From assembly GCF_000308815.1 (NCBI RefSeq), contig NZ_BAFX01000150.1:1-64000 (forward strand): 64,000 nt of DNA. Direction: 5' to 3'. The DNA comes from Nocardia concava NBRC 100430. Its GTDB lineage: Bacteria > Actinomycetota > Actinomycetes > Mycobacteriales > Mycobacteriaceae. The notes under the pieces were generated by a model that worked only from the letters and a program-made list of their open reading frames with translations, searched no databases and had not been told where the DNA came from. Within the stretch, counting starts at the first letter, position 1, and each line of letters starts with the position of its first letter. Position numbers and translations under genes: made by a program. Below, piece after piece: positions 19,141 to 30,462 of this stretch.

Positions 19141-19344
19141 TCAGCTGTCGAACACCCCGTTTTCGAGGCCGGCGGTGAACGACCGCCACTCCGCCGCACC
19201 GAACACCAGCGCCGGACCGAGCGGATTCTTGCTGTCCCGCACGCCGACTCGGCCCGCGGTCAGGAACGCCACCTCGACGCATTCCTTACCGGCCCCGCTG
19301 CGGCTGCTCTTGAACCAGCGGGCCCCGGAAAGCTCCACACTCAT
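19141..19344 (-). CDS. DUF397 domain-containing protein
   Basis: A 67-aa protein with the DUF397 signature: WFKSSRSGAGKECVEVA near the N-terminus, then VGVRDSKNPLGPALVF and AEWRSFTAGL. DUF397 proteins are actinobacterial, usually encoded next to an XRE regulator, and some act with it in developmental or antibiotic regulation in Streptomyces. The ATG at 19344 overlaps the stop of the regulator gene as ATGA, so translation is coupled. Part of the two-gene regulator unit with the next entry. Confidence 0.88.
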   Translation of the reverse strand: MSVELSGARWFKSSRSGAGKECVEVAFLTAGRVGVRDSKNPLGPALVFGAAEWRSFTAGLENGVFDS

Positions 19345-20237
19345 GCCGAATACTCCTTCGCCACCTGTCTGAGCAGGTTTCTGCTGTCCTGGACGTCCAG
19401 CGCGCAGCGTTCCAGACCGTCGCGCGCCCGGCGATAGCGCTGCACGTCGCCCTGTCTCTCGAGATACAGATCGCCGGTGAACCCCTCCACGTACACCACC
19501 GGGGGCTCCACCGGCTGCCCCTTGCCGTCGGTTCCGAACTCCAGAATCACGAACGGGCCGGTCGAAAGTCCCAGGGGGACACCGGCGGTGAAGGGCAGGA
19601 TGCGCAGGCCGACATTGGGCCGGGTACTCACCTCCGCCAAGTGCCGCACCTGCGCCGCCATCACCCTTGCACCTCCCACCAGGCGGCGCAATACCGATTC
19701 GTGCAACACCATGGCGATCCGTGCCGGGCTGCGGCGGGTGATCATGGCCTGCCGCTGCAGGCGCAGCTGAACGCGCCGATCCACCTCCGCCACAGTTTCT
19801 TCCGGATAGCCGAGCCGGTTCAGGGCCCTTGCGTAGTCGGCGGTCTGCAGCAGCCCGGGCACCAATTCCGATTGGTAGCAGGACAACTGCTGCGCGGATG
19901 CCTCGAGGCCCACGTAGACGTCGAAGTTCTCCGGAATCAGATCGCCGTAGGAGTGCCACCAGCTCTTGACGGCCGCCTGCTGCGCCAAACCCTTGAGCCC
20001 CTCGGCGATTTCGGCCGGTATGCCGTAGATCCGGCACAGCTCCTGGATGTCGATGGTGCGGATGCGATCGGCATTGCCCTTCTCGAGCCGTTGTAAGGTG
20101 CTCGCGCCCCACTCCATCAGCTTCGCCGCCTCGGCGATGGTGAGTCCGGCCTGGATACGCCAGTCGCGCAGATAACGACCGAGCTGGCGGCGGGGCAGGG
20201 TGGATGACGCGGGGCCTTCGGACACAACACGCTCCAT
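19341..20237 (-). CDS. XRE-family regulator with DUF5753-like C-terminus (Scr1/WhiJ type)
   Basis: A 298-aa protein. Residues about 18-70 contain a helix-turn-helix: LGRYLRDWRIQAGLTIAEAAKLMEWGASTLQRLEKGNA. The C-terminal part (SYGDLIPENFDVYVGLEASAQQLSCYQSELVPGLLQTADYARAL) is the DUF5753 domain typical of Streptomyces WhiJ-like regulators, which are encoded with DUF397 partners. It is the promoter-proximal gene and is followed without gap by the DUF397 gene. These pairs are commonly described as a DNA-binding regulator plus antagonist; that role is inferred here. Upstream gap 20238-20509 holds its promoter. Confidence 0.88.
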   Translation of the reverse strand: MERVVSEGPASSTLPRRQLGRYLRDWRIQAGLTIAEAAKLMEWGASTLQRLEKGNADRIRTIDIQELCRIYGIPAEIAEGLKGLAQQAAVKSWWHSYGDLIPENFDVYVGLEASAQQLSCYQSELVPGLLQTADYARALNRLGYPEETVAEVDRRVQLRLQRQAMITRRSPARIAMVLHESVLRRLVGGARVMAAQVRHLAEVSTRPNVGLRILPFTAGVPLGLSTGPFVILEFGTDGKGQPVEPPVVYVEGFTGDLYLERQGDVQRYRRARDGLERCALDVQDSRNLLRQVAKEYSA

Positions 20238-21082: not shown

Positions 21083-21553
21083 TTGTTGGCCTTCGAACAC
21101 TCGCCTGTTCCGGCGTGCCGGACCGCGTCCGTGGCGGACCTGGATGCGATCCGCGCCCTCGAGGTGATCGAATTCGAGCATCTCGCCTATCCGTATTTCG
21201 TTCTGCGCCAATTATTCGAATTACACGGAGCAAACTGGACGGTTGCCGAAGAGGCGGGGGAGCTCTGCGGCTACGTCCTCACCGCCCTCGACGGCGCGGG
21301 CAGCGCGTGGTTTCTCGGATTTGCTGTCGCCGCCGACCGCCAGGGCCGCGGCTACGGCCGCACCCTGCTGGAAGCCGCACTGGCACAGTGCCGCCGGGCC
21401 CGCGCCGAACAGGTCTTCGTCACCGTGAAGCCCGGCAATCGCGCCGCCTACCACCTCTACAAGGAGGTCGGATTCGTGTGGACCGACCACGAGCCGGCCT
21501 ACTTCGGGGCCGATGAGCCCCGAGATGTGCTGGTACACAGGATTTATCATTGA
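21083..21553 (+). CDS. GNAT family N-acetyltransferase
   Basis: A 156-aa GNAT-fold enzyme that transfers acetyl from acetyl-CoA. The CoA-binding loop is seen in GFAVAADRQGRGYGRTLLEAAL (Q/RxxGxG/A pattern: RQGRGYG), and the fourth-strand region AEQVFVTVKPGNRAAYHLYKEVGFVW matches the family's beta5-alpha4 motif. The start is TTG at 21083 with GGAGGGG 7-8 bases upstream. Ends 2 bases before the ATG of the next gene (TGA-TC-ATG), suggesting co-transcription with the membrane protein. Acceptor substrate unknown. Confidence 0.85.
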   Translation: MLAFEHSPVPACRTASVADLDAIRALEVIEFEHLAYPYFVLRQLFELHGANWTVAEEAGELCGYVLTALDGAGSAWFLGFAVAADRQGRGYGRTLLEAALAQCRRARAEQVFVTVKPGNRAAYHLYKEVGFVWTDHEPAYFGADEPRDVLVHRIYH

Positions 21554-21555
21554 TC

Positions 21556-22416
21556 ATGCTCGAGAAAAGCGCTCCCTCTTCACCATTCGTGGCGGATATG
21601 AGCATGCGCATCGAGCGGCATGCCGACACCTACGCCGAGAGCGTCACCGAATTCCTCGACCAGCCGCACCGCCAGCGCCGCCGCACCACCGAACAACCGC
21701 TGCTGGATCTGTTCACCCGGCACACCGAGGCGGTGGTCGCCACCTATGATCCGCCCGGAATCCGCAGGGCCGGTGACAGTCTCGTCTTCTCCCACATCTA
21801 CGCCCCCGTGCTCGAGCACACCGCCACGGCGGCGTCCCGGCCCCTCTCGGTCAATCAGCTGCTGGCCGCGCTCATCGCGGCCGAGGTGGAGTTCCGCGGG
21901 CCATTGCGCCTGAGCCGCACCCAGAATCGGCTGCTGGCCGAGGCCTACGAGCGGCTGGGCCCGCCGCTGACCCAGGCCGGACTGCCCGCGCACGCCGCGC
22001 TCGCCTATCGGCGCGCGGGCAGTCTCTACCGCATCGACGAGGACACCGATGCCGAGGACCGGTGCGGTCTGGCGCTGGCCCGGGCCCGGCGCGCGGCCCA
22101 GCCGGTGGGCTGGAAGCGGATCGGCGGCTGGTTCCCGGATCTCATCTGCGGCTACGGATATCGGCCCTTCCGCATGCTGTGGTTCGTGGCGGCCCAGCTG
22201 GTGGTCTTCCTCGTGGCGGTACTGCTGCGGTCGGATCAGTCGGTGGCGGTGACCGTCTTCCAGGTGCTGATGAACTATCTGAATCCGCTGGGCATCGGCG
22301 ATACCGAGCATCTGCGCGTGGGCGGGCGGGCCATTCTCGTGATCGAGAGCTATCTGGGCGCGGTCACCATGTCGGTGTTCTTCGCCCTGCTGGTGCGCCG
22401 CTGGTTCCGGTTGTGA
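21556..22416 (+). CDS. two-helix membrane protein with pore-loop-like segment
   Basis: A 286-aa protein. The N-terminal 200 residues are soluble and helical with Arg/Glu-rich stretches. The C-terminus has one hydrophobic helix (residues 206-224), then a loop VFQVLMNYLNPLGIGDTEHL and a second helix (258-280). This helix, pore-loop, helix arrangement resembles a potassium-channel module, with NPLGIGD in place of the TVGYGD filter; the Thr and Tyr are missing, so K+ selectivity is not expected. It follows the GNAT gene by 2 bases and ends one base before the stop codon of the convergent SCO2521-type gene. No Shine-Dalgarno is obvious before the chosen ATG. Confidence 0.6.
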   Translation: MLEKSAPSSPFVADMSMRIERHADTYAESVTEFLDQPHRQRRRTTEQPLLDLFTRHTEAVVATYDPPGIRRAGDSLVFSHIYAPVLEHTATAASRPLSVNQLLAALIAAEVEFRGPLRLSRTQNRLLAEAYERLGPPLTQAGLPAHAALAYRRAGSLYRIDEDTDAEDRCGLALARARRAAQPVGWKRIGGWFPDLICGYGYRPFRMLWFVAAQLVVFLVAVLLRSDQSVAVTVFQVLMNYLNPLGIGDTEHLRVGGRAILVIESYLGAVTMSVFFALLVRRWFRL

Positions 22417-23400
22417 TCACCACTGGATGGTGCTGATCTTGGAGCTGCGCAGGGCCGCCAGGGTCGCCACCGCCAGACGGTCGCGCAACTGCCCCACCTG
22501 CGCGGTCCACTGCCGGGTGAAACCCGGATCGGATTCCAGCCGGGTCCACAGTTCCCGCAGCCGGGGCGGCGTGTGCGCGCCGGGCATCCACAGGTGCACC
22601 AGCTGTTCGAGCAGCGGCGACAGGCGCGCGGACGAATCCTGTTCGGGCGCTTCCCGATCGGCCTCCGCCAGGGCGGCACCCAGGATGGACAGCAACCAGT
22701 CGTGGACCGCCAGATCCTCGCAGAAGCGCTGCACCCCGGCCAGATCCCGGGCGGTCGGCACCATGATCCGCACCGATCGGGTGGTCTCGTCCTCGAGCCG
22801 GAAGGCGAACAGGGTGCGGGCGCGGGTGCTGCCGTCCACCGGCGGCGCGACTCGCGCGGCCCAGCGCAGCCGGGTGGCGCTGGAGCGCACCGGCGGATCC
22901 TGATCCAGCCGGGCATCGGTGCGCACCCGGGTGAGCAGCCGGTCGCTGATCGAGCCCAGATCCAGAGTGGTGGCGCTGGAGCCCTCGAGGAAGCCCTCGG
23001 TGAGATCGACCGCGGCCGTGGTGTCGTCGCCGATCCGGTGCAGCAGTTCGATGGTGCCGACCTGGTTCAGATAGTGCGACCAGGGCCGCCGGTTCCGATC
23101 CTCCGCCCGGACCACGGTCGAGCACGCCGAACTCTGGATCACCCGGCCGCCCACCAGCACCGCGTGCGCGGCCACCGTCCCGATGGCGCGGCTGTCCGAG
23201 CGCGACACCGTCGCCAGCCGGCAGTCCACGCCGACCGCCGAGCTCGGCGAAACCGCCAGCGCCAGTGGGCGTTCCCGCATCAGTACGCGCTGCCCGGGCA
23301 GCAGCGACAACAGCGCCGACGCCTCGCGCGCGGCCAGCCCCCCGGAGTTCGGCAGCAGTGCGGTGCGCACTTCCCCCAGCAGCACCAGCGGATCGTTCAT
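22417..23400 (-). CDS. SCO2521 family protein
   Basis: A 327-aa protein, the fourth gene of a conserved actinobacterial cluster known from Streptomyces coelicolor as SCO2521-2524. It begins MNDPLVLLGEVRTALLPNSGG and includes RVLMRERPLALAVSPSSAVGVDCRLATVSRSDSRAIGTVAAHAVLVGG, a barrel-like beta-rich stretch. No catalytic motif was recognised. It lies 3 bases after the SCO2522-type gene on the same strand and stops directly against the convergent membrane-protein gene. The family name reflects order and overall similarity; the assignment is from memory of the family names and cannot be checked here. Confidence 0.7.
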   Translation of the reverse strand: MNDPLVLLGEVRTALLPNSGGLAAREASALLSLLPGQRVLMRERPLALAVSPSSAVGVDCRLATVSRSDSRAIGTVAAHAVLVGGRVIQSSACSTVVRAEDRNRRPWSHYLNQVGTIELLHRIGDDTTAAVDLTEGFLEGSSATTLDLGSISDRLLTRVRTDARLDQDPPVRSSATRLRWAARVAPPVDGSTRARTLFAFRLEDETTRSVRIMVPTARDLAGVQRFCEDLAVHDWLLSILGAALAEADREAPEQDSSARLSPLLEQLVHLWMPGAHTPPRLRELWTRLESDPGFTRQWTAQVGQLRDRLAVATLAALRSSKISTIQW

Positions 23401-23403
23401 GCC

Positions 23404-24456
23404 TCAGACGTCCCCGAGGAAGATGTGGTTCAAACGCCGGGTGGCCTGGCGCGGGACCTCCACCGGAATTCGCTCGCCCGCACCGCGTTCGGCCAGTTTG
23501 GCCTGCACATCGTCGTCGAGCTGCAGATGGTCGAGGATGACCCGGACCGCGTGCTCGATGCCCAGGTAGCTGTAGGGCAGCACGGACAGCGCCCGATAGG
23601 CCGCGAAGGGTTTGGCCCGCGGGTTCAGCTGCACCACCGCGGGCAACCGCGACCAGTCGCCGGGCCACGGGTCGTCCCACGGCACCGGCGCGGCCACCAT
23701 GGCGCCCTCGTCGCGAATCATGCCCAGCCGCAACAACTGCCAGATGGCGGCCAGGAACGGGCAGGACCACAGGATGCTCTCCACCTCCTGCCCGGCCACC
23801 TCCTCGAGCTGGCGGCTCCACAGCTGCACATCCAGGAAGATCGAGTGATTGCGCGCGCCGAACTCCTCCGGCGGCCGGTAGCGGGCGATCCGCATGGCCT
23901 GCCCCGCATCGAATTCCGAGGAGCGGCGGCCATTGCACAGCCAGCCGGACTCCACCGTCGGCGGGCGGCGGCCGGTGCTGTCGCGCGCGGGTTCGGCGAC
24001 GATGCGGGCGGCCATCATCTCGGCCAGGCGGACCGGCTCGCCGACGGGTTCACCGTCGAGGAAGCCGGGCACCTCCGCGCAGCCCGCCTCGCGGGCGAGA
24101 TAGTCGATGCGCACCCCGCATTCCGCCGCCGCGGCGAGCAGTTTCTCGAGCACCTCGCGCGGATCGGACTTGCGGCGCGCGTCCCGGGACCGCGAGGACG
24201 CGGTGCGGGTCCAGAAGTAGTCGTCCACCAGGAAGCAGGTGCTCACCCGCGCGCCGGGGCCGAATTCCTTTTCGGCGGCGTCCATCTGGGCCTCGACGAT
24301 GGGCGCCACCTTACGCAGCTGCGCGTGGATGCGGTCGACCCCGTTGACGAGCTCGTCCATGTAGAAGTGCCCGACCTCGATGGATAGATGCGAGAGCGGC
24401 TGTCCGGCCACGCGATTGCGTTCACCTGCCTCGCTGTAGTCGGTCGCGGAGCTCAT
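23404..24456 (-). CDS. SCO2522 family protein
   Basis: A 350-aa protein starting MSSATDYSEAGERNRVAG, chosen because GGAGGT lies 6-7 bases upstream and the ATG overlaps the previous stop as ATGA; a longer frame to 24588 has no support. Central features are FLVDDYFWTRTASSRSR and SILWSCPFLAAIWQLLRLGM (a Cys-containing buried helix), and the C-terminal NHIFLGDV. No recognised enzymatic domain. Part of the same four-gene operon as the SCO2521, SCO2523 and SCO2524 type proteins. Confidence 0.7.
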   Translation of the reverse strand: MSSATDYSEAGERNRVAGQPLSHLSIEVGHFYMDELVNGVDRIHAQLRKVAPIVEAQMDAAEKEFGPGARVSTCFLVDDYFWTRTASSRSRDARRKSDPREVLEKLLAAAAECGVRIDYLAREAGCAEVPGFLDGEPVGEPVRLAEMMAARIVAEPARDSTGRRPPTVESGWLCNGRRSSEFDAGQAMRIARYRPPEEFGARNHSIFLDVQLWSRQLEEVAGQEVESILWSCPFLAAIWQLLRLGMIRDEGAMVAAPVPWDDPWPGDWSRLPAVVQLNPRAKPFAAYRALSVLPYSYLGIEHAVRVILDHLQLDDDVQAKLAERGAGERIPVEVPRQATRRLNHIFLGDV

Positions 24457-25385
24457 CGGCGCACCTCCACCTGTTCCCAGACGGCGTCGTTCATGAGTTT
24501 CTCGGTGAGCGAGCGGAACGCCTCCACGGTCGCGGCATTGGCCACGTGTGCGGCCACGTCCACGTCCAGGATCACCTGTTCCCGGCACTGCAGCATCGGT
24601 TCCACCGGGATTCTGCCCAGTATCCCGCTCTCGCCCATGCCGTGGCGATTGGCCGCGCGGGTCAGGGTGTTGTGCTGTTCCTGCAACCAGGCCGCCTGGG
24701 CCGGGCGCAGCCCGCCGCTCGCGCCGAGTTCGGGCACGGCGGTGCGGATGTAGCGCAGCGAACCGAGCAGTTCGACGCGGTCGTGTCCCCAGGCCTCACC
24801 GGTCTCGAGCACGCCGTGCTGATCGTGCACCAGACCGTGCGCGGCCGCGATGTGCTGGCGGGTCCAGCGGTGGAAGATGAGCCAGCGGCACACCGCCCGG
24901 GCCAGCTGCGGCTGTTTGGTGGCGCTCAGCGCCAGGGCCAGCGCGATGGACCGGCCCGCGCTCAGATCTACGAAGGTGACGTCGTATTCCTGTTCGCAGG
25001 TGAGGAACAGCGCCGCGCAGCGGTTGATCATGCGTTCGTCGAGGGTGGTGAACTCGGATCCGCCGAGGTCGCCGGGAAACAGCACCAGGCGGCCCGAGGG
25101 GTGCCGGGACCGGCTCAGTTCCGGCCGGTCGGTCTCGGAGCGCACGCTGAGCCGGGCGGGCGTGCCGTTCTCGTCGAGCAGATAGGCGTGCAGCCCACTG
25201 CCGTCGGTGATGCCGTTGTCGATCCGGCTGATCTCGAAAGTGCCTCCGGCGGTGGGTGATCCGAAGTCGAAGTCCAGGTACGCGACCTTGAGACCCTTCA
25301 TGCTCAGCCAGTAGGCCATATTGCAGCTGGTCACCGAGCGGCCGGTGCCGCCCTTGTCGGAGGCCGAGAACACCAGCACGGTCAT
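24453..25385 (-). CDS. SCO2523 family variant P-loop protein (ParA/MinD-like)
   Basis: A 310-aa P-loop ATPase of the ParA/MinD superfamily. The deviant Walker A motif reads KGGTGRS at residues 11-17: the signature Lys11 is present but the canonical Lys before Ser is Arg16, the feature that gives the family its 'variant P-loop' name. VAYLDFDFGSPTAGGTFE follows (Walker A' with acidic cluster), and YDVTFVDLSAGRSIA carries the Walker B Asp. The start overlaps the stop of the SCO2524-type gene (ATGA). It could still bind nucleotide, but hydrolysis may be altered. Likely the membrane- or surface-organising factor of this cluster, by analogy with ParA/MinD; that role is inferred. Confidence 0.75.
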   Translation of the reverse strand: MTVLVFSASDKGGTGRSVTSCNMAYWLSMKGLKVAYLDFDFGSPTAGGTFEISRIDNGITDGSGLHAYLLDENGTPARLSVRSETDRPELSRSRHPSGRLVLFPGDLGGSEFTTLDERMINRCAALFLTCEQEYDVTFVDLSAGRSIALALALSATKQPQLARAVCRWLIFHRWTRQHIAAAHGLVHDQHGVLETGEAWGHDRVELLGSLRYIRTAVPELGASGGLRPAQAAWLQEQHNTLTRAANRHGMGESGILGRIPVEPMLQCREQVILDVDVAAHVANAATVEAFRSLTEKLMNDAVWEQVEVRR

Positions 25386-27262
25386 TCGCTCCTGGTCGCG
25401 TCGGAGCGGGCATAGGCCAGCTCATCCAGTTCCAGCAGGGCCTGCGAGGCCAGGCTCACCGCGGTGCCGGGACGCTCGTCCACCAGTTCGCGGGCGCGTT
25501 CGAGCCGCTGCTCGGCCAGGATCAGGGCGGTGCGGCCGGCCGACACGTCGGTTTCGCTGAGCTCCAGCATCTCTCGATTGAGCAGGTGCTCGGCCTCGGT
25601 CAGCAGCTCCATGGCCCGGGTCACCGAGGTCGGCGAGCGCAGCGGCGGTTCCCGGTACATGCGCGCGGCGGTCACCATGCACTCCACCACCCGCTCGGTG
25701 AGATACCAGGAGGGCAGCTCGACCTCGGGGCCGCCGAAGATCCGGCTCGGGTCGTCCCAGAGGCCGGTGGCCGGGCCGCCCCGGAAGGCGCGCAGGTCCA
25801 GATGATCCATGGTGGCCTGGGCCAGCGCCATCAGCTGATCGCGGGTCTCGACCGTGCCCGAGAGCCGCGCCGCCTGCAGCGTGCGCTTCAAAAGCACTGT
25901 GGCGTAATCGGATACCGTCCACCGCAGCAGCGGACCGTCCAGGTCCTCGCTACCGTGCAGGCGCAGGCTCACGCCCGGGGTGTGCATGGTGCGGGCCGGA
26001 TCGTCCTCGGTGAAGCGGCGGATGATGCGGCCGCGCCGGGCCAGTTCGTCGAAAATCGTTGCGGCGCGGTCCAGATCGTCGTCATTGGCCTCGCGGTTGA
26101 GCAGATCCTGCATGAGCACCGCGGACACGATGAGACTGAAGTAGTCCGACTCCTCGCCGTCGGAGGTGCGCCACGGAATGTCCTCGAGCGGCCAGCGCCC
26201 GGAACCGAAGCGCGCCACCGCCGCCCAGTAGCGCTGGGCCAGATCCCAGCGCAGCTGCAGCGCCTCGGCCAGGCGGCGCTGCTGGCTGTTGAGCAGGTCC
26301 AGCTCGCGGGTGCGCACCGAGGTGAGGTCGTTGATGCCGTCCAACGCCACCACGGTGAAATGCAGGTAGGGACGGGCGACCGCATGGCCGGGCTGGTCCG
26401 CGATCGGCATGTTCACGAAGTCGATGGTCGCGGCCTTGCGCACAATGCCCCAGCTCCAACCGCATTCGAAGAGCAGGCCCTCGGTATCGAGGTCCACGCC
26501 CTCGACCTGGCTCAGGGTGGCATCGTTGCGTAGTCGGATGCGCACCCGGTCCAGGCGGTTGCGGACCGCGGCGACCACCGTCTCCGGGGCGCTGCCGGTC
26601 TGATTGAGCATGGACAGCATCGCGCGCCCGGCCTCGGACTTGGGCTTGACGGTATTGACCACGAAACTGCGGATCAGGCCGACCATGGCGGCCGTGAGCC
26701 GAACATTGATGCGGGCGTCGAGAGCCTCGATGCGCGGGCCCAGCTCCACCGCGAGCCGGGTGCGCCGCGCCACCGCCTGCTCGGCGACCGGACCGCTGAA
26801 GCCGCGCAGGAACTTCAGCGCCGCCAGGCACAGGGTGAGTGACATCGAATAGGAGTCGACCACGTCGAGCTTGCGCTGGTCGGCGGTCGGCTCGGTGCCG
26901 TCGGAGGCGGCCAGGTAGCTGCCCGCGGCGAAGACCGGCAGTTCGGTATTCGTTTCCGGATCGCGCTCGGTGTAGCGCTCGACGTACTGCTCGAGCAGCC
27001 AGACCACCCGCTCGCCGATGGACAGCCCGTTGTCGCCCAGGGGCGCGAGCACCTCGCGGATATCGTCGGCGATCTCGTCCGGGCGCTCCAGCCCGAACCC
27101 GTCGATCTCGGTGGCCGGATAGAGCAGGCACAGCAGCTGCTCCGCGTCGCTGATGGAGTTGGAACCGTTGCGACCGTCCCAGACCCACTGTTCATCGCGG
27201 TAGCACGCGGTCAACATGGACCGCCAGACTCCGAGGATCTGTTCCCGTGGCTTGATTCTCAT
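25382..27262 (-). CDS. SCO2524 family protein
   Basis: A 626-aa cytoplasmic protein, first gene of the cluster. It begins MRIKPREQILGVWRSMLTACYRDEQWVWDGRNGSNSISDAEQLLCLLYP, the typical opening of this family, and is predicted to be largely helical with many Arg/Glu residues and no transmembrane segment. No catalytic motif was recognised. Its stop overlaps the next gene by 4 bases. The 209-base gap upstream is shared with a divergent ABC transporter gene. Its size and helical content suggest a scaffold or partner protein; the function is not known. Confidence 0.72.
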   Translation of the reverse strand: MRIKPREQILGVWRSMLTACYRDEQWVWDGRNGSNSISDAEQLLCLLYPATEIDGFGLERPDEIADDIREVLAPLGDNGLSIGERVVWLLEQYVERYTERDPETNTELPVFAAGSYLAASDGTEPTADQRKLDVVDSYSMSLTLCLAALKFLRGFSGPVAEQAVARRTRLAVELGPRIEALDARINVRLTAAMVGLIRSFVVNTVKPKSEAGRAMLSMLNQTGSAPETVVAAVRNRLDRVRIRLRNDATLSQVEGVDLDTEGLLFECGWSWGIVRKAATIDFVNMPIADQPGHAVARPYLHFTVVALDGINDLTSVRTRELDLLNSQQRRLAEALQLRWDLAQRYWAAVARFGSGRWPLEDIPWRTSDGEESDYFSLIVSAVLMQDLLNREANDDDLDRAATIFDELARRGRIIRRFTEDDPARTMHTPGVSLRLHGSEDLDGPLLRWTVSDYATVLLKRTLQAARLSGTVETRDQLMALAQATMDHLDLRAFRGGPATGLWDDPSRIFGGPEVELPSWYLTERVVECMVTAARMYREPPLRSPTSVTRAMELLTEAEHLLNREMLELSETDVSAGRTALILAEQRLERARELVDERPGTAVSLASQALLELDELAYARSDATRSE

Positions 27263-27471
27263 CGACGCCGTCCCCTGCCCTGTCGTGGCCAGCCTCGCCG
27301 TTGTAGCTCTGAACGCGCGCGGCTGAAACTATCATGCGCCAGGCGCGCGCACCGGGTGGAAGGCAGGCCCGAAATCGCGTCGGGCACAGGGCAATATCGG
27401 GCAGATCGGGCGTGGGAAAGCGAGTGTCGCTTATGCCGCCGGTAGCGTCGCCGATCGTGAATGGTCTCAGC

Positions 27472-28362
27472 ATGGACCGGACGGTTCGCCACCGGATGAC
27501 CGCACGACGCCGACATGCCGCGGTCGGCTACGCCCTGCTGTTGCCGAGCCTCATCGGGGTGGGGTGCTTTCTGCTGCTGCCGGTCGCGGTGGTGCTGTGG
27601 CTGAGCGTGCACAGCTGGAATCTGTTGGGGCCCATCGAGTTCACCGGGTGGGAGAACTGGCGGTCGGTGCTGACCGATCGGGAGTTCGGGCATTCGATTC
27701 TGGTGACGCTGGGGCTGACGGCCATCGTGGTGCCGGTGCAGACGGCGCTCGGGTTCGCGGTGGCGGCCATGCTGGCGCGGCGCGGGCGGGGTGGGACCGT
27801 GTTGCGGGTGGTGTACGCGCTGCCGTGGATGTGTGCGCCAGTGGCGGTGGGCGTGGTGTGGCAGTGGATTTTCGCGCCGAGCGATGGGGCGTTGAACGCG
27901 CTGCTGGGGCGGCGGGTGGAGTGGCTGAGTTCGCCGACGCTGGCGCTGCCGGCGGTGGCGTCGGTGATCGTCTGGATGAATGTCGGTTATGTGGCTTTGT
28001 TCTTCGTCGCGGGGATCCGGGCCATTCCGGGGGAGATCCTCGATGCGGGCGCTCTCGACGGGGCCACCGGGTGGCGGCGGGTGCGGTGGCTGATCCTGCC
28101 GCTGCTGCGGCCGACCATGTTCTTCGTGCTGGTCACCGGGGTGCTGACCGTGTTCCAGACCTTCGACGCGGTATATGCGCTGACCAAGGGCGGGCCGGAC
28201 CATCACACGGATGTGGTTGCCATGCGGCTGTATTCGGAGGCGTTCGAGGCGGCGCATCCGGGGCGGGCGGCGGTCATGGCGGTGGTGGTGTTCGCGGTCA
28301 TGTTCGTGATCACCGTGGGGCAGCACCGGTACCTCCGGGATCGGACCAGCTATGAGTACTGA
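27472..28362 (+). CDS. ABC transporter permease, sugar-type (MalF-like)
   Basis: A 296-aa inner-membrane permease with about six hydrophobic segments. The EAA motif region EILDAGALDGATGWRRVRWLILPLLRP is typical of carbohydrate uptake (CUT1) permeases of the MalF/UgpA type. ATG at 27472 is chosen; other in-frame starts at 27457 (GTG) and 27496 exist, and no strong Shine-Dalgarno decides. Its stop overlaps the second permease start by 11 bases. Imports a sugar or similar small substrate with the partner permease and the binding protein that follow. Confidence 0.85.
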   Translation: MDRTVRHRMTARRRHAAVGYALLLPSLIGVGCFLLLPVAVVLWLSVHSWNLLGPIEFTGWENWRSVLTDREFGHSILVTLGLTAIVVPVQTALGFAVAAMLARRGRGGTVLRVVYALPWMCAPVAVGVVWQWIFAPSDGALNALLGRRVEWLSSPTLALPAVASVIVWMNVGYVALFFVAGIRAIPGEILDAGALDGATGWRRVRWLILPLLRPTMFFVLVTGVLTVFQTFDAVYALTKGGPDHHTDVVAMRLYSEAFEAAHPGRAAVMAVVVFAVMFVITVGQHRYLRDRTSYEY

Positions 28363-29176
28363 GCGGGCGGTGCGGGCGGGGGCGGCCTACGCGCTGTTGA
28401 TCCTCGGGGCGCTGGTGACGGTCGCGCCGCTGGTGTTGAGCGCCATGACCGCGGTCAAGACGCCGCGACAGCTCGCGAACGAATCCGCCTTGGCTGCACC
28501 GCATCCCGCGACGCTGGACAATTTCCGGACCGTGCTCGACCAGGGGGTCGGGCGGGCGGTGGCGGTGACGGCGCTGATGACGGTGTGTATCACCTGCGGA
28601 CAGCTGGTCGTGTCGATCATGGCCGCGTACGCGTTCGCGCGCATGGAGTTTCCCGGACGCGATGTGCTGTTCTGGATCTATCTGGGGACCATGATGGTGC
28701 CGACCGCGGTCACGCTGGTGCCGCTGTATCTGATGTTCGCGAAGCTGGGGTGGCTCAATACCTTCTGGGCGCTGGTGCTGCCGTTCCTGTTCGGCTCGCC
28801 CTACGCGATCTTCCTGCTGCGCCAGTACTTCCGGGCGATTCCCGGCGAGATCATCGACGCGGCGCGGGTGGACGGGGCCACGGCGCTGGACATTCTGGTG
28901 AGCGTCGTGGTGCCGATGAGCCGGCCGATCCTGGCCACGCTCACGATCATCACCGTTGTCGCGCAATGGAACAACTTCATGTGGCCGCTGGTGGCGGCGT
29001 CCGGGCGCAGGTGGCAGGTGCTGACCGTGGCGACGGCGAACATGCAGACGCAGTACGACGCGCAATGGACGCTGATCATGGCGGCCACGACGCTGGCCAT
29101 CGCGCCGCTGGTGGTGCTGTTCGTGGTGTTCCAGCGGCAGGTGCTGCGGTCCGTCGCGGTGACGGGGCTCAAATGA
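28352..29176 (+). CDS. ABC transporter permease, sugar-type (MalG-like)
   Basis: A 274-aa inner-membrane permease, the MalG/UgpE-type partner. It has about six hydrophobic segments and the EAA loop GEIIDAARVDGATALDILVSVVVPMSRP. The ATG start at 28352 overlaps the previous gene by 11 bases, and its TGA overlaps the binding-protein ATG (ATGA), so the three genes form one tight operon. No ATPase gene is adjacent; in actinobacteria a shared MsiK-type ATPase often energises such importers. Longer in-frame upstream extension is shadow sequence. Confidence 0.85.
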   Translation: MSTERAVRAGAAYALLILGALVTVAPLVLSAMTAVKTPRQLANESALAAPHPATLDNFRTVLDQGVGRAVAVTALMTVCITCGQLVVSIMAAYAFARMEFPGRDVLFWIYLGTMMVPTAVTLVPLYLMFAKLGWLNTFWALVLPFLFGSPYAIFLLRQYFRAIPGEIIDAARVDGATALDILVSVVVPMSRPILATLTIITVVAQWNNFMWPLVAASGRRWQVLTVATANMQTQYDAQWTLIMAATTLAIAPLVVLFVVFQRQVLRSVAVTGLK

Positions 29177-30462
29177 GCGGGCCGCGAATGAAGGATTCAA
29201 CCCGGGCCGTGCTCGGGATTCTCGCGGTCGCTCTACTGCTGGTGGCCGCGGCGGTATGGCTCGGACGCGATACCGAGGGCGGCGGTCGCACGGTGGTGCG
29301 GCTGCGGATCTGGGATCAGAGCTTCGTGTCGGCGTACCGGGCCTCGCTGGACGAGTTCCAGCGGGTCAATCCGGATGTCGAGGTGCGAATCACGGTGGTG
29401 CCGTGGGCTTCCTACGCGCAGAAGCTGCGGCTGGATGTCGCGGGCGGGATCGCCGACGATCTGTTCTGGACGAATCTCTACGAGGATTACGCCGACAGTG
29501 GGCACCTGGTGGATATCGCGAAGGCCCTGGGGCCGGAGGCCGCGCGGATCTGGGATCCCCGGGCCGTGGCTCAGTACACGCGCGATGGGAAGCTCTGGGC
29601 GGTACCGCAGTTCGTCGACGCGGGCACCGCCGTCTACTACAACCGGGAGCTGCTGGAGAAGGCCGGGGTCGATGCCGTCGAACTGGCCGCGGCACGGTGG
29701 AGTCCGGATGCCGGGCGGGATACGTTCCGGCCGTTGCTGCGGCGGCTGGCTCCGGTGTCGGGGTGGCCGTACAACGCCGCCAACGACTTTCAATCCATCT
29801 CGCTGCCCTATCTGGGGTCGGCGGGCGGACAGTTGCAGCGGGACGGTCGCTTCGATTTCGACTCACCGCAGGGGCGCGACGCCTTCGGATACACCGCCGC
29901 GCTGGTCGCGGACGGATTGTCCCCGTCCGCCGCGGACACCAATACCAGCGGCGATTTCGCCAAGAACGCCTTTCTCCAGGGCCGCATGGCGCTGTTCCAG
30001 TCCGGGACCTTCAATCTCGCCACCATTGCGAAGAATGCCGGATTCCGCTGGGGGCTGGCCATGATTCCCGAAGGGCCTGACGGTCGGGTGAGCGCGGACA
30101 ACGCGATCGGTGTCGCGGGTAATACGGCCTCCGCGCATCCGGAGGCGGTGCGGCGGGTGCTGGCGTGGCTGGGCAGCGCCGACGGGAACCGGTATCTCGG
30201 CGCCGAGGGGGCCACCATTCCCGCCGTGGTGTCCGACCAGCAGGTCTACCGCGATTACTGGGCGCGGCACGGGGTGGATGTCTCGCCGTTCTTCGATGTG
30301 CTGCAGGGCAAGACGATCGCGGCCGGCGGGGGTGCCGGATTCCCGGCGGCCTTGCGGGCCATCACGCCGATTCTCGACGAGATGTACCTGGGCCGGATTC
30401 CGGTACCCGACGCGCTGGCCCGCGCGCAGCGCGAGGCGAATGCCGCTGTAGCGCAACGGTGA
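29173..30462 (+). CDS. extracellular solute-binding protein (sugar-type) without lipobox
   Basis: A 429-aa binding protein of the CUT1 sugar importer. Hydrophobic N-terminal stretch VLGILAVALLLVAAAVWLG (residues about 13-31) is followed directly by acidic, Gly-rich linker sequence, and VRLRIWDQSFVSAYRASLDEFQRVNPDVEV is the typical binding-protein opening. Later segments WAVPQFVDAGTAVYYNRELLEKAG and QGRMALFQSGTFNLATI fit the family. There is no Cys after the hydrophobic segment, so the usual lipoprotein lipobox is absent and it is probably membrane-anchored by the N-terminal helix or secreted. ATG overlaps the upstream stop. Binds sugar or polyol outside the membrane. Confidence 0.82.
   Translation: MSGPRMKDSTRAVLGILAVALLLVAAAVWLGRDTEGGGRTVVRLRIWDQSFVSAYRASLDEFQRVNPDVEVRITVVPWASYAQKLRLDVAGGIADDLFWTNLYEDYADSGHLVDIAKALGPEAARIWDPRAVAQYTRDGKLWAVPQFVDAGTAVYYNRELLEKAGVDAVELAAARWSPDAGRDTFRPLLRRLAPVSGWPYNAANDFQSISLPYLGSAGGQLQRDGRFDFDSPQGRDAFGYTAALVADGLSPSAADTNTSGDFAKNAFLQGRMALFQSGTFNLATIAKNAGFRWGLAMIPEGPDGRVSADNAIGVAGNTASAHPEAVRRVLAWLGSADGNRYLGAEGATIPAVVSDQQVYRDYWARHGVDVSPFFDVLQGKTIAAGGGAGFPAALRAITPILDEMYLGRIPVPDALARAQREANAAVAQR

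What the first reader, a model, noticed from the sequence alone, without database searches (positions are those of the whole stretch)
22417..27262. SCO2521-SCO2524 type operon with a variant-P-loop ATPase of unknown function
Four tightly packed genes (two ATGA overlaps and a 3-base gap) carry a 626-aa helical protein, a ParA/MinD-like ATPase whose canonical P-loop Lys is Arg16 (KGGTGRS), and two proteins without known domains. The set is conserved in actinobacteria but uncharacterised. A deviant MinD-like ATPase with conserved partners suggests a spatial-organisation or membrane-targeting system.
Basis: partly seen in the sequence, partly recalled or inferred. Interest (0 to 1): 0.75.

Follow-up and report, generated by a model that had tools for sequence, protein, structure and literature searches.

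The report
Six-gene variant-ATPase cassette in Nocardia
A block of four conserved, unstudied bacterial genes, including an ATP-binding protein with an altered active-site motif, turns out to travel with a membrane-protein gene and an acetyltransferase gene, and two of its unknown proteins are predicted to have enzyme-like folds, which makes its unknown role testable.

Summary
In detail: four minus-strand genes (22417-27262), tightly packed, each matching its NCBIfam family (SCO2521, SCO2522, SCO2523 variant P-loop, SCO2524) far above cut-off. The order SCO2524>2523>2522>2521 holds at 81 of 86 ATPase genes in 82 loci. Arg16 of KGGTGRS is invariant in the cassettes. New here: SCO2522 is predicted to have the class I aminoacyl-tRNA-synthetase fold (Z 11.8) without the HIGH motif; SCO2524 is an (alpha/alpha)6 toroid closest to sugar epimerases (Z 20.7). 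The cassette is patchy (54 of 78 genomes of the genus, 5 of 296 of the phylum), decays gene by gene, and in 6 of 76 genomes lies beside EACC1-type caspase genes. Best reading: a membrane-linked signal-and-effector cassette with an ATP-bound switch, not a MinD-like positioning system. This is inference from fold and context; no activity is shown. The four families are catalogued; cassette, folds and EACC1 link were not found in the papers searched.

The parts
25382..27262 (-). SCO2524 family protein, 626 aa; residues 1-540 predicted (alpha/alpha)6 toroid, 541-626 extra helices
   Evidence: NF040567 806.6 bits; model pLDDT 90.8; Z 20.7 to D-mannose isomerase 5x32
24453..25385 (-). SCO2523 family variant P-loop MinD/ParA-like protein, 310 aa, KGGTGRS with Arg16
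   Evidence: NF040564 415 bits; AAA_KGGVGR NF047398 39.6 bits, below its cut-off of 90; Arg16 82 of 82
23404..24456 (-). SCO2522 family protein, 350 aa; predicted class I aminoacyl-tRNA-synthetase-like fold, E27-V-G-H30 where HIGH would stand (my motif reading), no KMSKS
   Evidence: NF040566 385 bits; model pLDDT 81.7; Z 11.8 to ArgRS 1iq0; motif count
22417..23400 (-). SCO2521 family protein, 327 aa, fold not predicted here
   Evidence: NF040565 360.2 bits; best PDB profile match only E 0.47
21550..22416 (+). Membrane partner, up to 288 aa (start codon uncertain; 21598 also possible), soluble N-terminal part and hydrophobic stretches at about 206-237 and 261-282, motif NYLNPLGxGDT between them
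   Evidence: No match in NCBIfam or Pfam at E up to 1; hydropathy; relatives in 69 of 82 loci; alignment A4
21083..21553 (+). GNAT acetyltransferase with YPYFVLRQLF motif, 4-base overlap with the longest form of the membrane-protein gene
   Evidence: Acetyltransf_1 60.7 bits; relatives in 67 of 82 loci; copies beside the cassette in an unnamed second genus and in Solihabitans at 39-40% identity

Best explanation
A chromosomal, membrane-linked signal-and-effector cassette of filamentous actinobacteria. Proposed working: SCO2522 (class I aaRS-like fold) and the GNAT, with the SCO2525 methyltransferase where present, make, modify or bind a small amine-bearing ligand; the SCO2524 toroid binds it; SCO2523, an ATP-bound dimer that turns over slowly or not at all because Arg16 replaces the catalytic Lys, holds the complex in one state; on a trigger the complex acts on a membrane effector, which is the two-segment protein here, a membrane protein of another family (DUF6879 in one member) in an unnamed second genus, or, in some relatives, an adjacent EACC1/caspase-EccC module. 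Shown: gene set, order, conservation, alternative membrane partners, EACC1 adjacency, predicted folds. Inferred: complex formation, ligand, ATP state, effector role, trigger.
For: Order conserved at 81 of 86 ATPase genes in varying flanks, with the cassette inverted between the same flanking families (L068/L070 against L075/L081). Membrane partner in 69 of 82 loci and in 5 of 9 non-Nocardia loci; in 10 of 14 flank groups under a very lax grouping. In the unnamed genus (L006-L008) and in L083 a gene of another membrane-protein family follows SCO2521 instead. EACC1-type caspase matches within 1.5 kb of SCO2521 and in its direction in 6 of 76 genomes, against about 0.035 expected by a crude Poisson estimate; about three independent lineages by my judgement. 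EACC1 PF19953 is over cut-off in 1 of 4 short neighbours scanned; the NF047832 caspase model in 3 of 3 long neighbours scanned. Kaur et al. 2020 (PMC7159879; sections 24 and 33 read, other passages seen) report predicted-inactive MinD/ParA domains and EACC1-caspase pairs in NTP-dependent conflict systems of multicellular bacteria. Enzyme-like invariants of SCO2522: H23, E27, H30, D78, D79, D118, E123, R178, H204, D209 in 76 of 76, R122 in 75. SCO2523 keeps K11, D38, D40 and D140 in every cassette row covering them, so nucleotide binding looks selected, not decayed.
Against: No activity, complex or phenotype was measured. The folds come from AlphaFold2; Foldseek gives no PDB hit at E 0.001 or better for either, and profile comparison gives no sequence link of SCO2522 to CysRS, MshC-type or ArgRS proteins (probabilities 2.0, 0.4 and 0.5%, controls 0.1-0.7). 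The caspase neighbour is rare: 6 of 58 SCO2523 places in those genomes. PADLOC gives only a P-loop hit of SCO2523 (22.4 bits) and a 12.8-bit hit of the membrane protein to a one-TM 'Effector' model; no copy in the plasmid or phage collections for the three pairs tried. Many flanking genes look metabolic. In S. coelicolor the operon is described as HupS-dependent, with SCO2525 needed for normal growth (PMC11472566 passage), which fits a housekeeping or developmental role equally well. Two genomes (G329, G334) keep SCO2522 and SCO2521 without any SCO2523 or SCO2524, so not all parts always work as one complex.
Confidence: 0.38

Rival explanations
1. A small-molecule or peptide modification pathway: SCO2522 activates an amino acid with ATP and ligates it (as MshC does in mycothiol synthesis), the GNAT acetylates (as MshD does), SCO2525 methylates, SCO2524 binds or epimerises a sugar-like substrate, SCO2523 is a scaffold and the membrane protein exports or senses the product.
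For: SCO2522 model matches MshC 8hfm and 3c8z at Z 11.0 and 10.9 among class I aaRS; SCO2524 model is closest to AGE/mannose isomerase/GH76 toroids; the GNAT and, in six of nine non-Nocardia loci, a SCO2525-family methyltransferase sit beside the cassette; 6 of 7 remnant loci that keep SCO2522 without SCO2523/SCO2524 also keep the GNAT, and five orphan SCO2522 genes evolve under constraint (dN/dS 0.16-0.36 over ten pairs). The roles of MshC and MshD are recalled knowledge.
Against: SCO2522 lacks HIGH and the KMSKS pattern in 76 of 76; a pathway does not obviously need a variant ParA protein, a membrane protein or EACC1/caspase neighbours. Four of the seven remnant loci (L087-L090) lie in genomes that hold a cassette elsewhere, so those orphans may lean on it. 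Orphans changed E123 in six of eight and E301 in five of eight, and constraint is relaxed against two intact pairs (0.09-0.10).
Confidence: 0.26
2. One reading: a MinD/ParA-like spatial organiser or membrane-targeting ATPase with dedicated partners.
For: MinD/ParA-type domain with signature Lys11, D38xD40 and D140; Pfam CbiA and MipZ over cut-off; membrane partner gene.
Against: Catalytic Lys replaced by Arg in every cassette row; patchy distribution, duplications and losses; enzyme-like partners; no known positioning partner matched.
Confidence: 0.08
3. An anti-phage defence system proper, protecting by membrane depolarisation through the two-segment protein (pore-like loop NYLNPLGxGDT).
For: Weak in-register profile match of the membrane protein to potassium-channel pores (hhalign 8.3%, controls 0.1-0.8); a 12.8-bit PADLOC 'Effector, 1TM' hit (E 0.021); patchy distribution; EACC1/caspase neighbours.
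Against: No TVGYGD selectivity sequence and no Ion_trans_2 match; no strong PADLOC match; no defence genes recognised among the window's near neighbours, which were only partly annotated.
Confidence: 0.13

Closest known systems
NCBIfam SCO2521, SCO2522, SCO2523, SCO2524 families (NF040565, NF040566, NF040564, NF040567) and SCO2525 (NF040568)
   Same: All four genes are plain members, far above cut-off
   Different: The window copy has ABC-transporter genes, not a SCO2525 gene, next to SCO2524, and has membrane-protein and GNAT genes on the other side; in NCBIfam the membrane protein matches nothing and the GNAT passes no cut-off among the 25 best rows shown
KGGVGR-motif variant AAA ATPases (NF047398) and the predicted-inactive MinD/ParA domains of NTP-dependent conflict systems (Kaur et al. 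2020)
   Same: P-loop with Arg for the catalytic Lys (NF047398 by its name); E 6.7e-10 to NF047398; filamentous hosts
   Different: Below the NF047398 cut-off (39.6 against 90 bits); stand-alone protein with other conserved partners, not described in the sections and passages read. That NF047398 and the domains of Kaur et al. are the same is my inference
EACC1-caspase two-gene conflict module
   Same: Found beside the cassette in 6 of 76 genomes
   Different: Separate module; absent from most cassettes and from this window
Class I aminoacyl-tRNA synthetases and MshC
   Same: Predicted catalytic-domain fold of SCO2522, Z 11.8 over 214 residues
   Different: No HIGH, no KMSKS, no sequence-profile similarity; the 350-aa length leaves no room for a usual anticodon-binding domain (inference)
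AGE / GH76 / GH105 (alpha/alpha)6 toroid proteins
   Same: Predicted fold of SCO2524 residues 1-540, Z up to 20.7
   Different: No sequence relation found; catalytic residues not mapped; extra C-terminal helices

Membership tests
NCBIfam SCO2521-SCO2524 set | Each protein over the curated equivalog cut-off | tested here: met
   360.2/150, 385/200, 415/200, 806.6/300 bits
NCBIfam SCO2521-SCO2524 set | Gene order SCO2524>2523>2522>2521 | tested here: met
   met in the window and at 81 of 86 ATPase genes
MinD/ParA deviant-Walker-A ATPases | Signature Lys at start of the P-loop (K11) and DxD, D140 | tested here: met
   K11 82 of 82; D38, D40, D140 84 of 84
MinD/ParA deviant-Walker-A ATPases | Canonical catalytic P-loop Lys (KGGxGK[ST]) | tested here: not met
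   Arg16 in 82 of 82
KGGVGR variant ATPases (NF047398) | Score over the family cut-off of 90 bits | tested here: not met
   39.6 bits
Class I aminoacyl-tRNA synthetase (SCO2522) | Class I catalytic (HUP/Rossmann) fold | tested here: met
   Predicted model only: the 50 rows shown are class I aaRS or MshC, Z 9.6-11.8, best viral match a CysRS (E 0.064), Foldseek best E 0.028
Class I aminoacyl-tRNA synthetase (SCO2522) | HIGH motif | tested here: not met
   0 of 76. The control sets (15 CysRS, 14 MshC-type, 5 ArgRS) were themselves picked by this motif, so they are no test of the pattern
Class I aminoacyl-tRNA synthetase (SCO2522) | KMSKS motif | tested here: not met
   0 of 76, against 15 of 15 CysRS and 12 of 14 MshC-type; but 0 of 5 ArgRS too, so a weak test
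AGE-type (alpha/alpha)6 sugar epimerases (SCO2524) | (alpha/alpha)6 toroid fold | tested here: met
   Predicted model: Z 20.7, 335 residues, 4.0 A
AGE-type (alpha/alpha)6 sugar epimerases (SCO2524) | Catalytic residues of the epimerase | not tested
   No coordinates at hand to map residues
Ion_trans_2 potassium channels (membrane partner) | Selectivity sequence TVGYGD and family score | tested here: not met
   no Pfam match, loop reads NYLNPLGxGDT; hhalign 8.3%
NTP-dependent conflict systems of Kaur et al. 2020 | One of the core pairs (MoxR-vWA, DO-GTPase-GAP1, EACC1-caspase) in the cassette | tested here: not met
   The window block holds none; an EACC1-caspase pair lies beside 6 of 82 loci; MoxR-vWA and GTPase pairs were not searched for in the other loci

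The most novel reading that the evidence does not exclude
A categorically new prokaryotic signalling or immunity system in which an aminoacyl-tRNA-synthetase-like enzyme without the HIGH motif, a GNAT and an (alpha/alpha)6 toroid receptor make and read a small-molecule signal, an arginine-P-loop ParA homologue serves as an ATP-locked switch, and interchangeable membrane modules (two-segment protein, DUF6879 membrane protein, EACC1-caspase-EccC) execute the response.
Probability: 0.2. Interest if true: 0.88.

Novelty: new variant of a known kind. Interest (0 to 1): 0.57.

Why it matters
Five families named after S. coelicolor genes stand in NCBIfam without a function. Giving two of them a predicted fold, adding two gene partners and showing a non-random link to caspase-bearing conflict modules turns 'four unknown genes' into specific tests: ATP binding by an arginine P-loop, amino-acid activation by a HIGH-less class I fold, ligand binding by a toroid, and a membrane output. 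If the signal-and-effector reading holds, it would add a new core to the NTP-dependent systems of filamentous actinobacteria.

Tried and rejected
Sequence routes that gave nothing: profiles of SCO2522, SCO2524 and SCO2521 against PDB sequences (best E 6.6, 0.21 and 0.47); hhalign of SCO2522 with CysRS, MshC-type and ArgRS sets and one lone ArgRS sequence; PADLOC (a P-loop hit of SCO2523 at 1.4e-5 and a 12.8-bit hit of the membrane protein). The PDB profile search with the membrane protein gave TPR and designed helical proteins at E 0.05 or worse. The two loci of KGGVGR ATPases in the genus (2 of 59 genomes) were opened and show no homologue of the cassette genes within the stretch printed.

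Considered and rejected: phage or plasmid origin, since no match was found for SCO2523 and SCO2524 in plasmids and SCO2522 in phages; the other pairs were not tried. The idea that the GNAT is a random neighbour was rejected. The context grouping is too lax (one group holds 56 of 82 loci through common families), so I lean on it little.

The gene caller was home-made (a first version mis-called antisense frames and was discarded); starts are approximate, families come from single linkage of BLASTP hits, and the counts 69 and 67 of 82 count a relative anywhere in the locus.

The Poisson estimate assumes 8-Mb genomes and a 2-kb reach; I entered 57 cassettes where one search gives 58 SCO2523 places for these 76 genomes (two of them a lone and a partial gene); the six cases were found by comparing the printed tables by eye and are not independent.

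For that I lowered the pathway reading from 0.28 to 0.26.
Full report
What is there. Four minus-strand genes fill 22417-27262 exactly as described: SCO2524 (25382-27262), SCO2523 (24453-25385), SCO2522 (23404-24456) and SCO2521 (22417-23400), with two 4-base overlaps and one 3-base gap. Each passes its NCBIfam equivalog cut-off by a wide margin. SCO2523 reads KGGTGRS, with Arg16 in place of the catalytic Lys.

Conservation. A scan of genome contigs with an alignment of five SCO2523 proteins gave 451 relatives, of which the best 80 (77 loci) were kept, mostly Nocardia. I called genes with a home-made caller and clustered them. The order SCO2524>2523>2522>2521 on one strand holds at 81 of 86 ATPase genes; of the five exceptions two lie at contig ends, in one SCO2522 is split, in one the gene before SCO2523 fell into another cluster, and in one (L083) the right half is broken. 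In 78 genomes of the genus, SCO2523 and SCO2524 occur in the same 54, and SCO2522 and SCO2521 in 56 each. In the family only that genus has SCO2523: 9 of 201 genomes, 1 of 31 genera. In the phylum it is in 5 of 296 genomes, 2 of 198 genera. The second genus is unnamed; I take it to be Streptomyces from genome size and gene set, which is inference. The window's genome is likewise unnamed; its nearest named relatives, at up to 91% identity of SCO2523, are Nocardia.

The block is larger than reported. Two plus-strand genes, convergent with SCO2521, belong to it. The membrane-protein gene (21550-22416; its stop abuts that of SCO2521) has relatives in 69 of 82 loci, and the GNAT gene (21083-21553) in 67 of 82 (anywhere in the locus). 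The membrane gene is directly convergent with SCO2521 at 64 of 85 SCO2521 genes. Both can instead lie upstream in the same direction (L060, L064, L072, L078), and the whole block is inverted between the same flanking families in L068/L070 and L075/L081. The GNAT is one subfamily across genera: the copies beside the cassette in the unnamed second genus (3 of 3 loci, divergent next to the SCO2525 gene) and in Solihabitans are 39-40% identical to the window's and share a YPYFVLRQLF-like motif. In six of the nine non-Nocardia loci a SCO2525-family methyltransferase gene precedes SCO2524, each of the six confirmed by NCBIfam; five of the nine hold the membrane partner. In the unnamed genus and in L083 a different gene, coding for a protein with one or two strongly hydrophobic N-terminal stretches, follows SCO2521; of the two members scanned with Pfam, one matches DUF6879 and one matches nothing.

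Folds. SCO2522 was predicted at pLDDT 81.7 and pTM 0.83; residues 156-167 and 183-206, which hold part of the most conserved loop, are below 50. The 50 structures shown by VIA-align 2 are class I aminoacyl-tRNA synthetases or MshC, Z 9.6 to 11.8 (ArgRS 1iq0: 214 residues, 3.6 A), above the 7-8 that the tool gives as typical. Foldseek alone is weak (best E 0.028), but its best viral match is again a cysteinyl-tRNA synthetase (E 0.064). Against this, hhalign with three class I sets finds nothing, and HIGH and the KMSKS pattern are absent in 76 of 76, E-x-G-H standing where HIGH would be by my motif reading (the KMSKS pattern also missed 5 of 5 ArgRS controls). The conservation is enzyme-like: H23, E27, H30, D78, D79, D118, E123, N175, R178, H204 and D209 in 76 of 76. 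So it has the predicted fold, is not a canonical member, and its activity is unknown. SCO2524 was predicted at pLDDT 90.8 and pTM 0.87; residues 1-540 form an (alpha/alpha)6 toroid, closest to D-mannose isomerase (Z 20.7, 335 residues, 4.0 A), cellobiose and N-acylglucosamine epimerases and GH76 enzymes, with squalene-hopene cyclase and complement C5 at about 17; Foldseek alone reaches E 0.023. The fold is common and shows no function. SCO2521 has no lead; its best PDB profile match is at E 0.47.

The ATPase. K11, G12, G13, G15, R16 and S17 are in 82 of 82 rows that reach them, and D38, D40 and D140 in 84 of 84 (cassette members of 280-330 aa only). Strict retention of the rest of the nucleotide site argues for binding with altered turnover, not decay. 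One lone SCO2523 gene (L174) reads KGGAGRS and has lost the aspartate at position 40. SCO2523 is related to, but well below the cut-off of, the KGGVGR family. Kaur et al. 2020 (PMC7159879; sections 24 and 33 read and passages seen) describe predicted-inactive MinD/ParA domains in conflict systems of multicellular bacteria; the terms KGG and SCO25 do not occur in the main text held. A follow-up paper (PMC8195603, passages only) gave no hit for MinD or SIMIBI.

Link to a conflict module. In six of the 82 loci a 121-122-aa protein and a 1147-1449-aa protein (the shortest cut by a contig end) are encoded beside the cassette. The long ones that I scanned (3 of 6) pass the EACC1-associated caspase model (140.8, 142.6 and 149.2 against 140) and carry EccC-type ATPase domains. 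Of four short ones scanned with Pfam, one passes EACC1 PF19953 (24.6 against 23.6) and three do not. In 76 genomes there are 94 caspase matches; six lie within 1.5 kb of SCO2521 and in its direction, against about 0.035 expected by a rough estimate. Four of the six have almost the same spacing and look like one lineage, so about three independent cases; three or more has a chance of about 7e-6 under that estimate. The two caspase matches of the window's own genome lie on other contigs.

Decay. Seven loci keep SCO2522 but not SCO2523 or SCO2524, most between flanking families that hold a full cassette elsewhere: four with the GNAT, two with SCO2521 and the GNAT, one with SCO2521 only; an eighth orphan SCO2522 lies beside an intact cassette. 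Four of the seven (L087-L090) are in genomes that have a cassette at another place; the other three are in two genomes, G329 and G334, with no SCO2523 or SCO2524 at all. Five of the orphans compared pairwise have dN/dS 0.16-0.36, against 0.09 and 0.10 for two intact pairs. All eight keep H30, D78, D79, D118, R122, N175, R178, H204 and D209, while F81 and E301 changed in five of eight and E123 in six of eight. So SCO2522 can outlast the ATPase, perhaps with the GNAT, which weakens a model in which all parts form one obligate machine; the case rests on few genomes.

The membrane protein. Two hydrophobic stretches end the protein. Between them lies NYLNPLGxGDT. A profile alignment with potassium-channel pores from relatives falls in the right register but is weak (8.3%, controls 0.1-0.8), and the TVGYGD signature is absent. 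A pore is possible, not shown.

Interpretation. MinD-like positioning is the least likely of the readings I carry: the ATPase is altered, the set is dispensable and patchy, and the neighbours are enzyme-like. Two readings remain close: a membrane-linked signal-and-effector cassette (0.38) and a modification pathway of the MshC/MshD type (0.26). They are not exclusive, as the pathway could make the signal. The choice between them needs the experiments listed.

Literature. Searching SCO2521-SCO2524 as terms gave one paper, which names an operon sco2521-sco2526 in the HupS regulon and SCO2525 as needed for normal growth of S. coelicolor (PMC11472566, passages). A search with SCO2519, SCO2520, SCO2525, SCO2526 and SCO2528 listed 11 papers, of which I opened passages of three: one calls SCO2525 morphogenetic (PMC6344877), one cites its mutagenesis (PMC3017869), the third is the HupS paper; the primary report on SCO2525 was not seen. 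Searches for the P-loop wording, for conflict systems and for aaRS-like operons (listings) showed no title or abstract start describing the cassette or these folds. Most subscription papers and all supplements are outside what I could search.

Noticed in passing
window 19141-20237, minus strand: An XRE regulator with DUF5753 (19341-20237) followed by a 67-aa protein of a cluster that I labelled DUF397 by recall lies just beyond the GNAT; relatives of the pair lie near the cassette in close relatives of the window.
   Followed up: partly
window 27334-30462: Two permease-like genes and a solute-binding-protein-like gene of what looks like a sugar ABC transporter (by eye, no family search) adjoin the cassette on the SCO2524 side and are conserved there in close relatives.
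   Followed up: no
L019, L048, L064, L072: Loci with two cassettes or large parts of two, tandem or convergent, in some with duplicated GNAT and membrane genes.
   Followed up: partly
L067:13433-17779, L060:13424-17734, L028:14066-18346: Caspase domain fused to type VII secretion EccCa/EccCb-like ATPase domains, with an EACC1-like gene beside it: an EccC-type part on an EACC1-type caspase.
   Followed up: partly
SCO2522 family, window residues 74, 126, 174, 232: Four nearly invariant cysteines (76, 76, 72 and 74 of 76); a metal or redox site is possible.
   Followed up: no
L174:9308-10222: A lone SCO2523 gene near families that elsewhere flank a full cassette; reads KGGAGRS and has lost the second aspartate of DxD.
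   Followed up: partly
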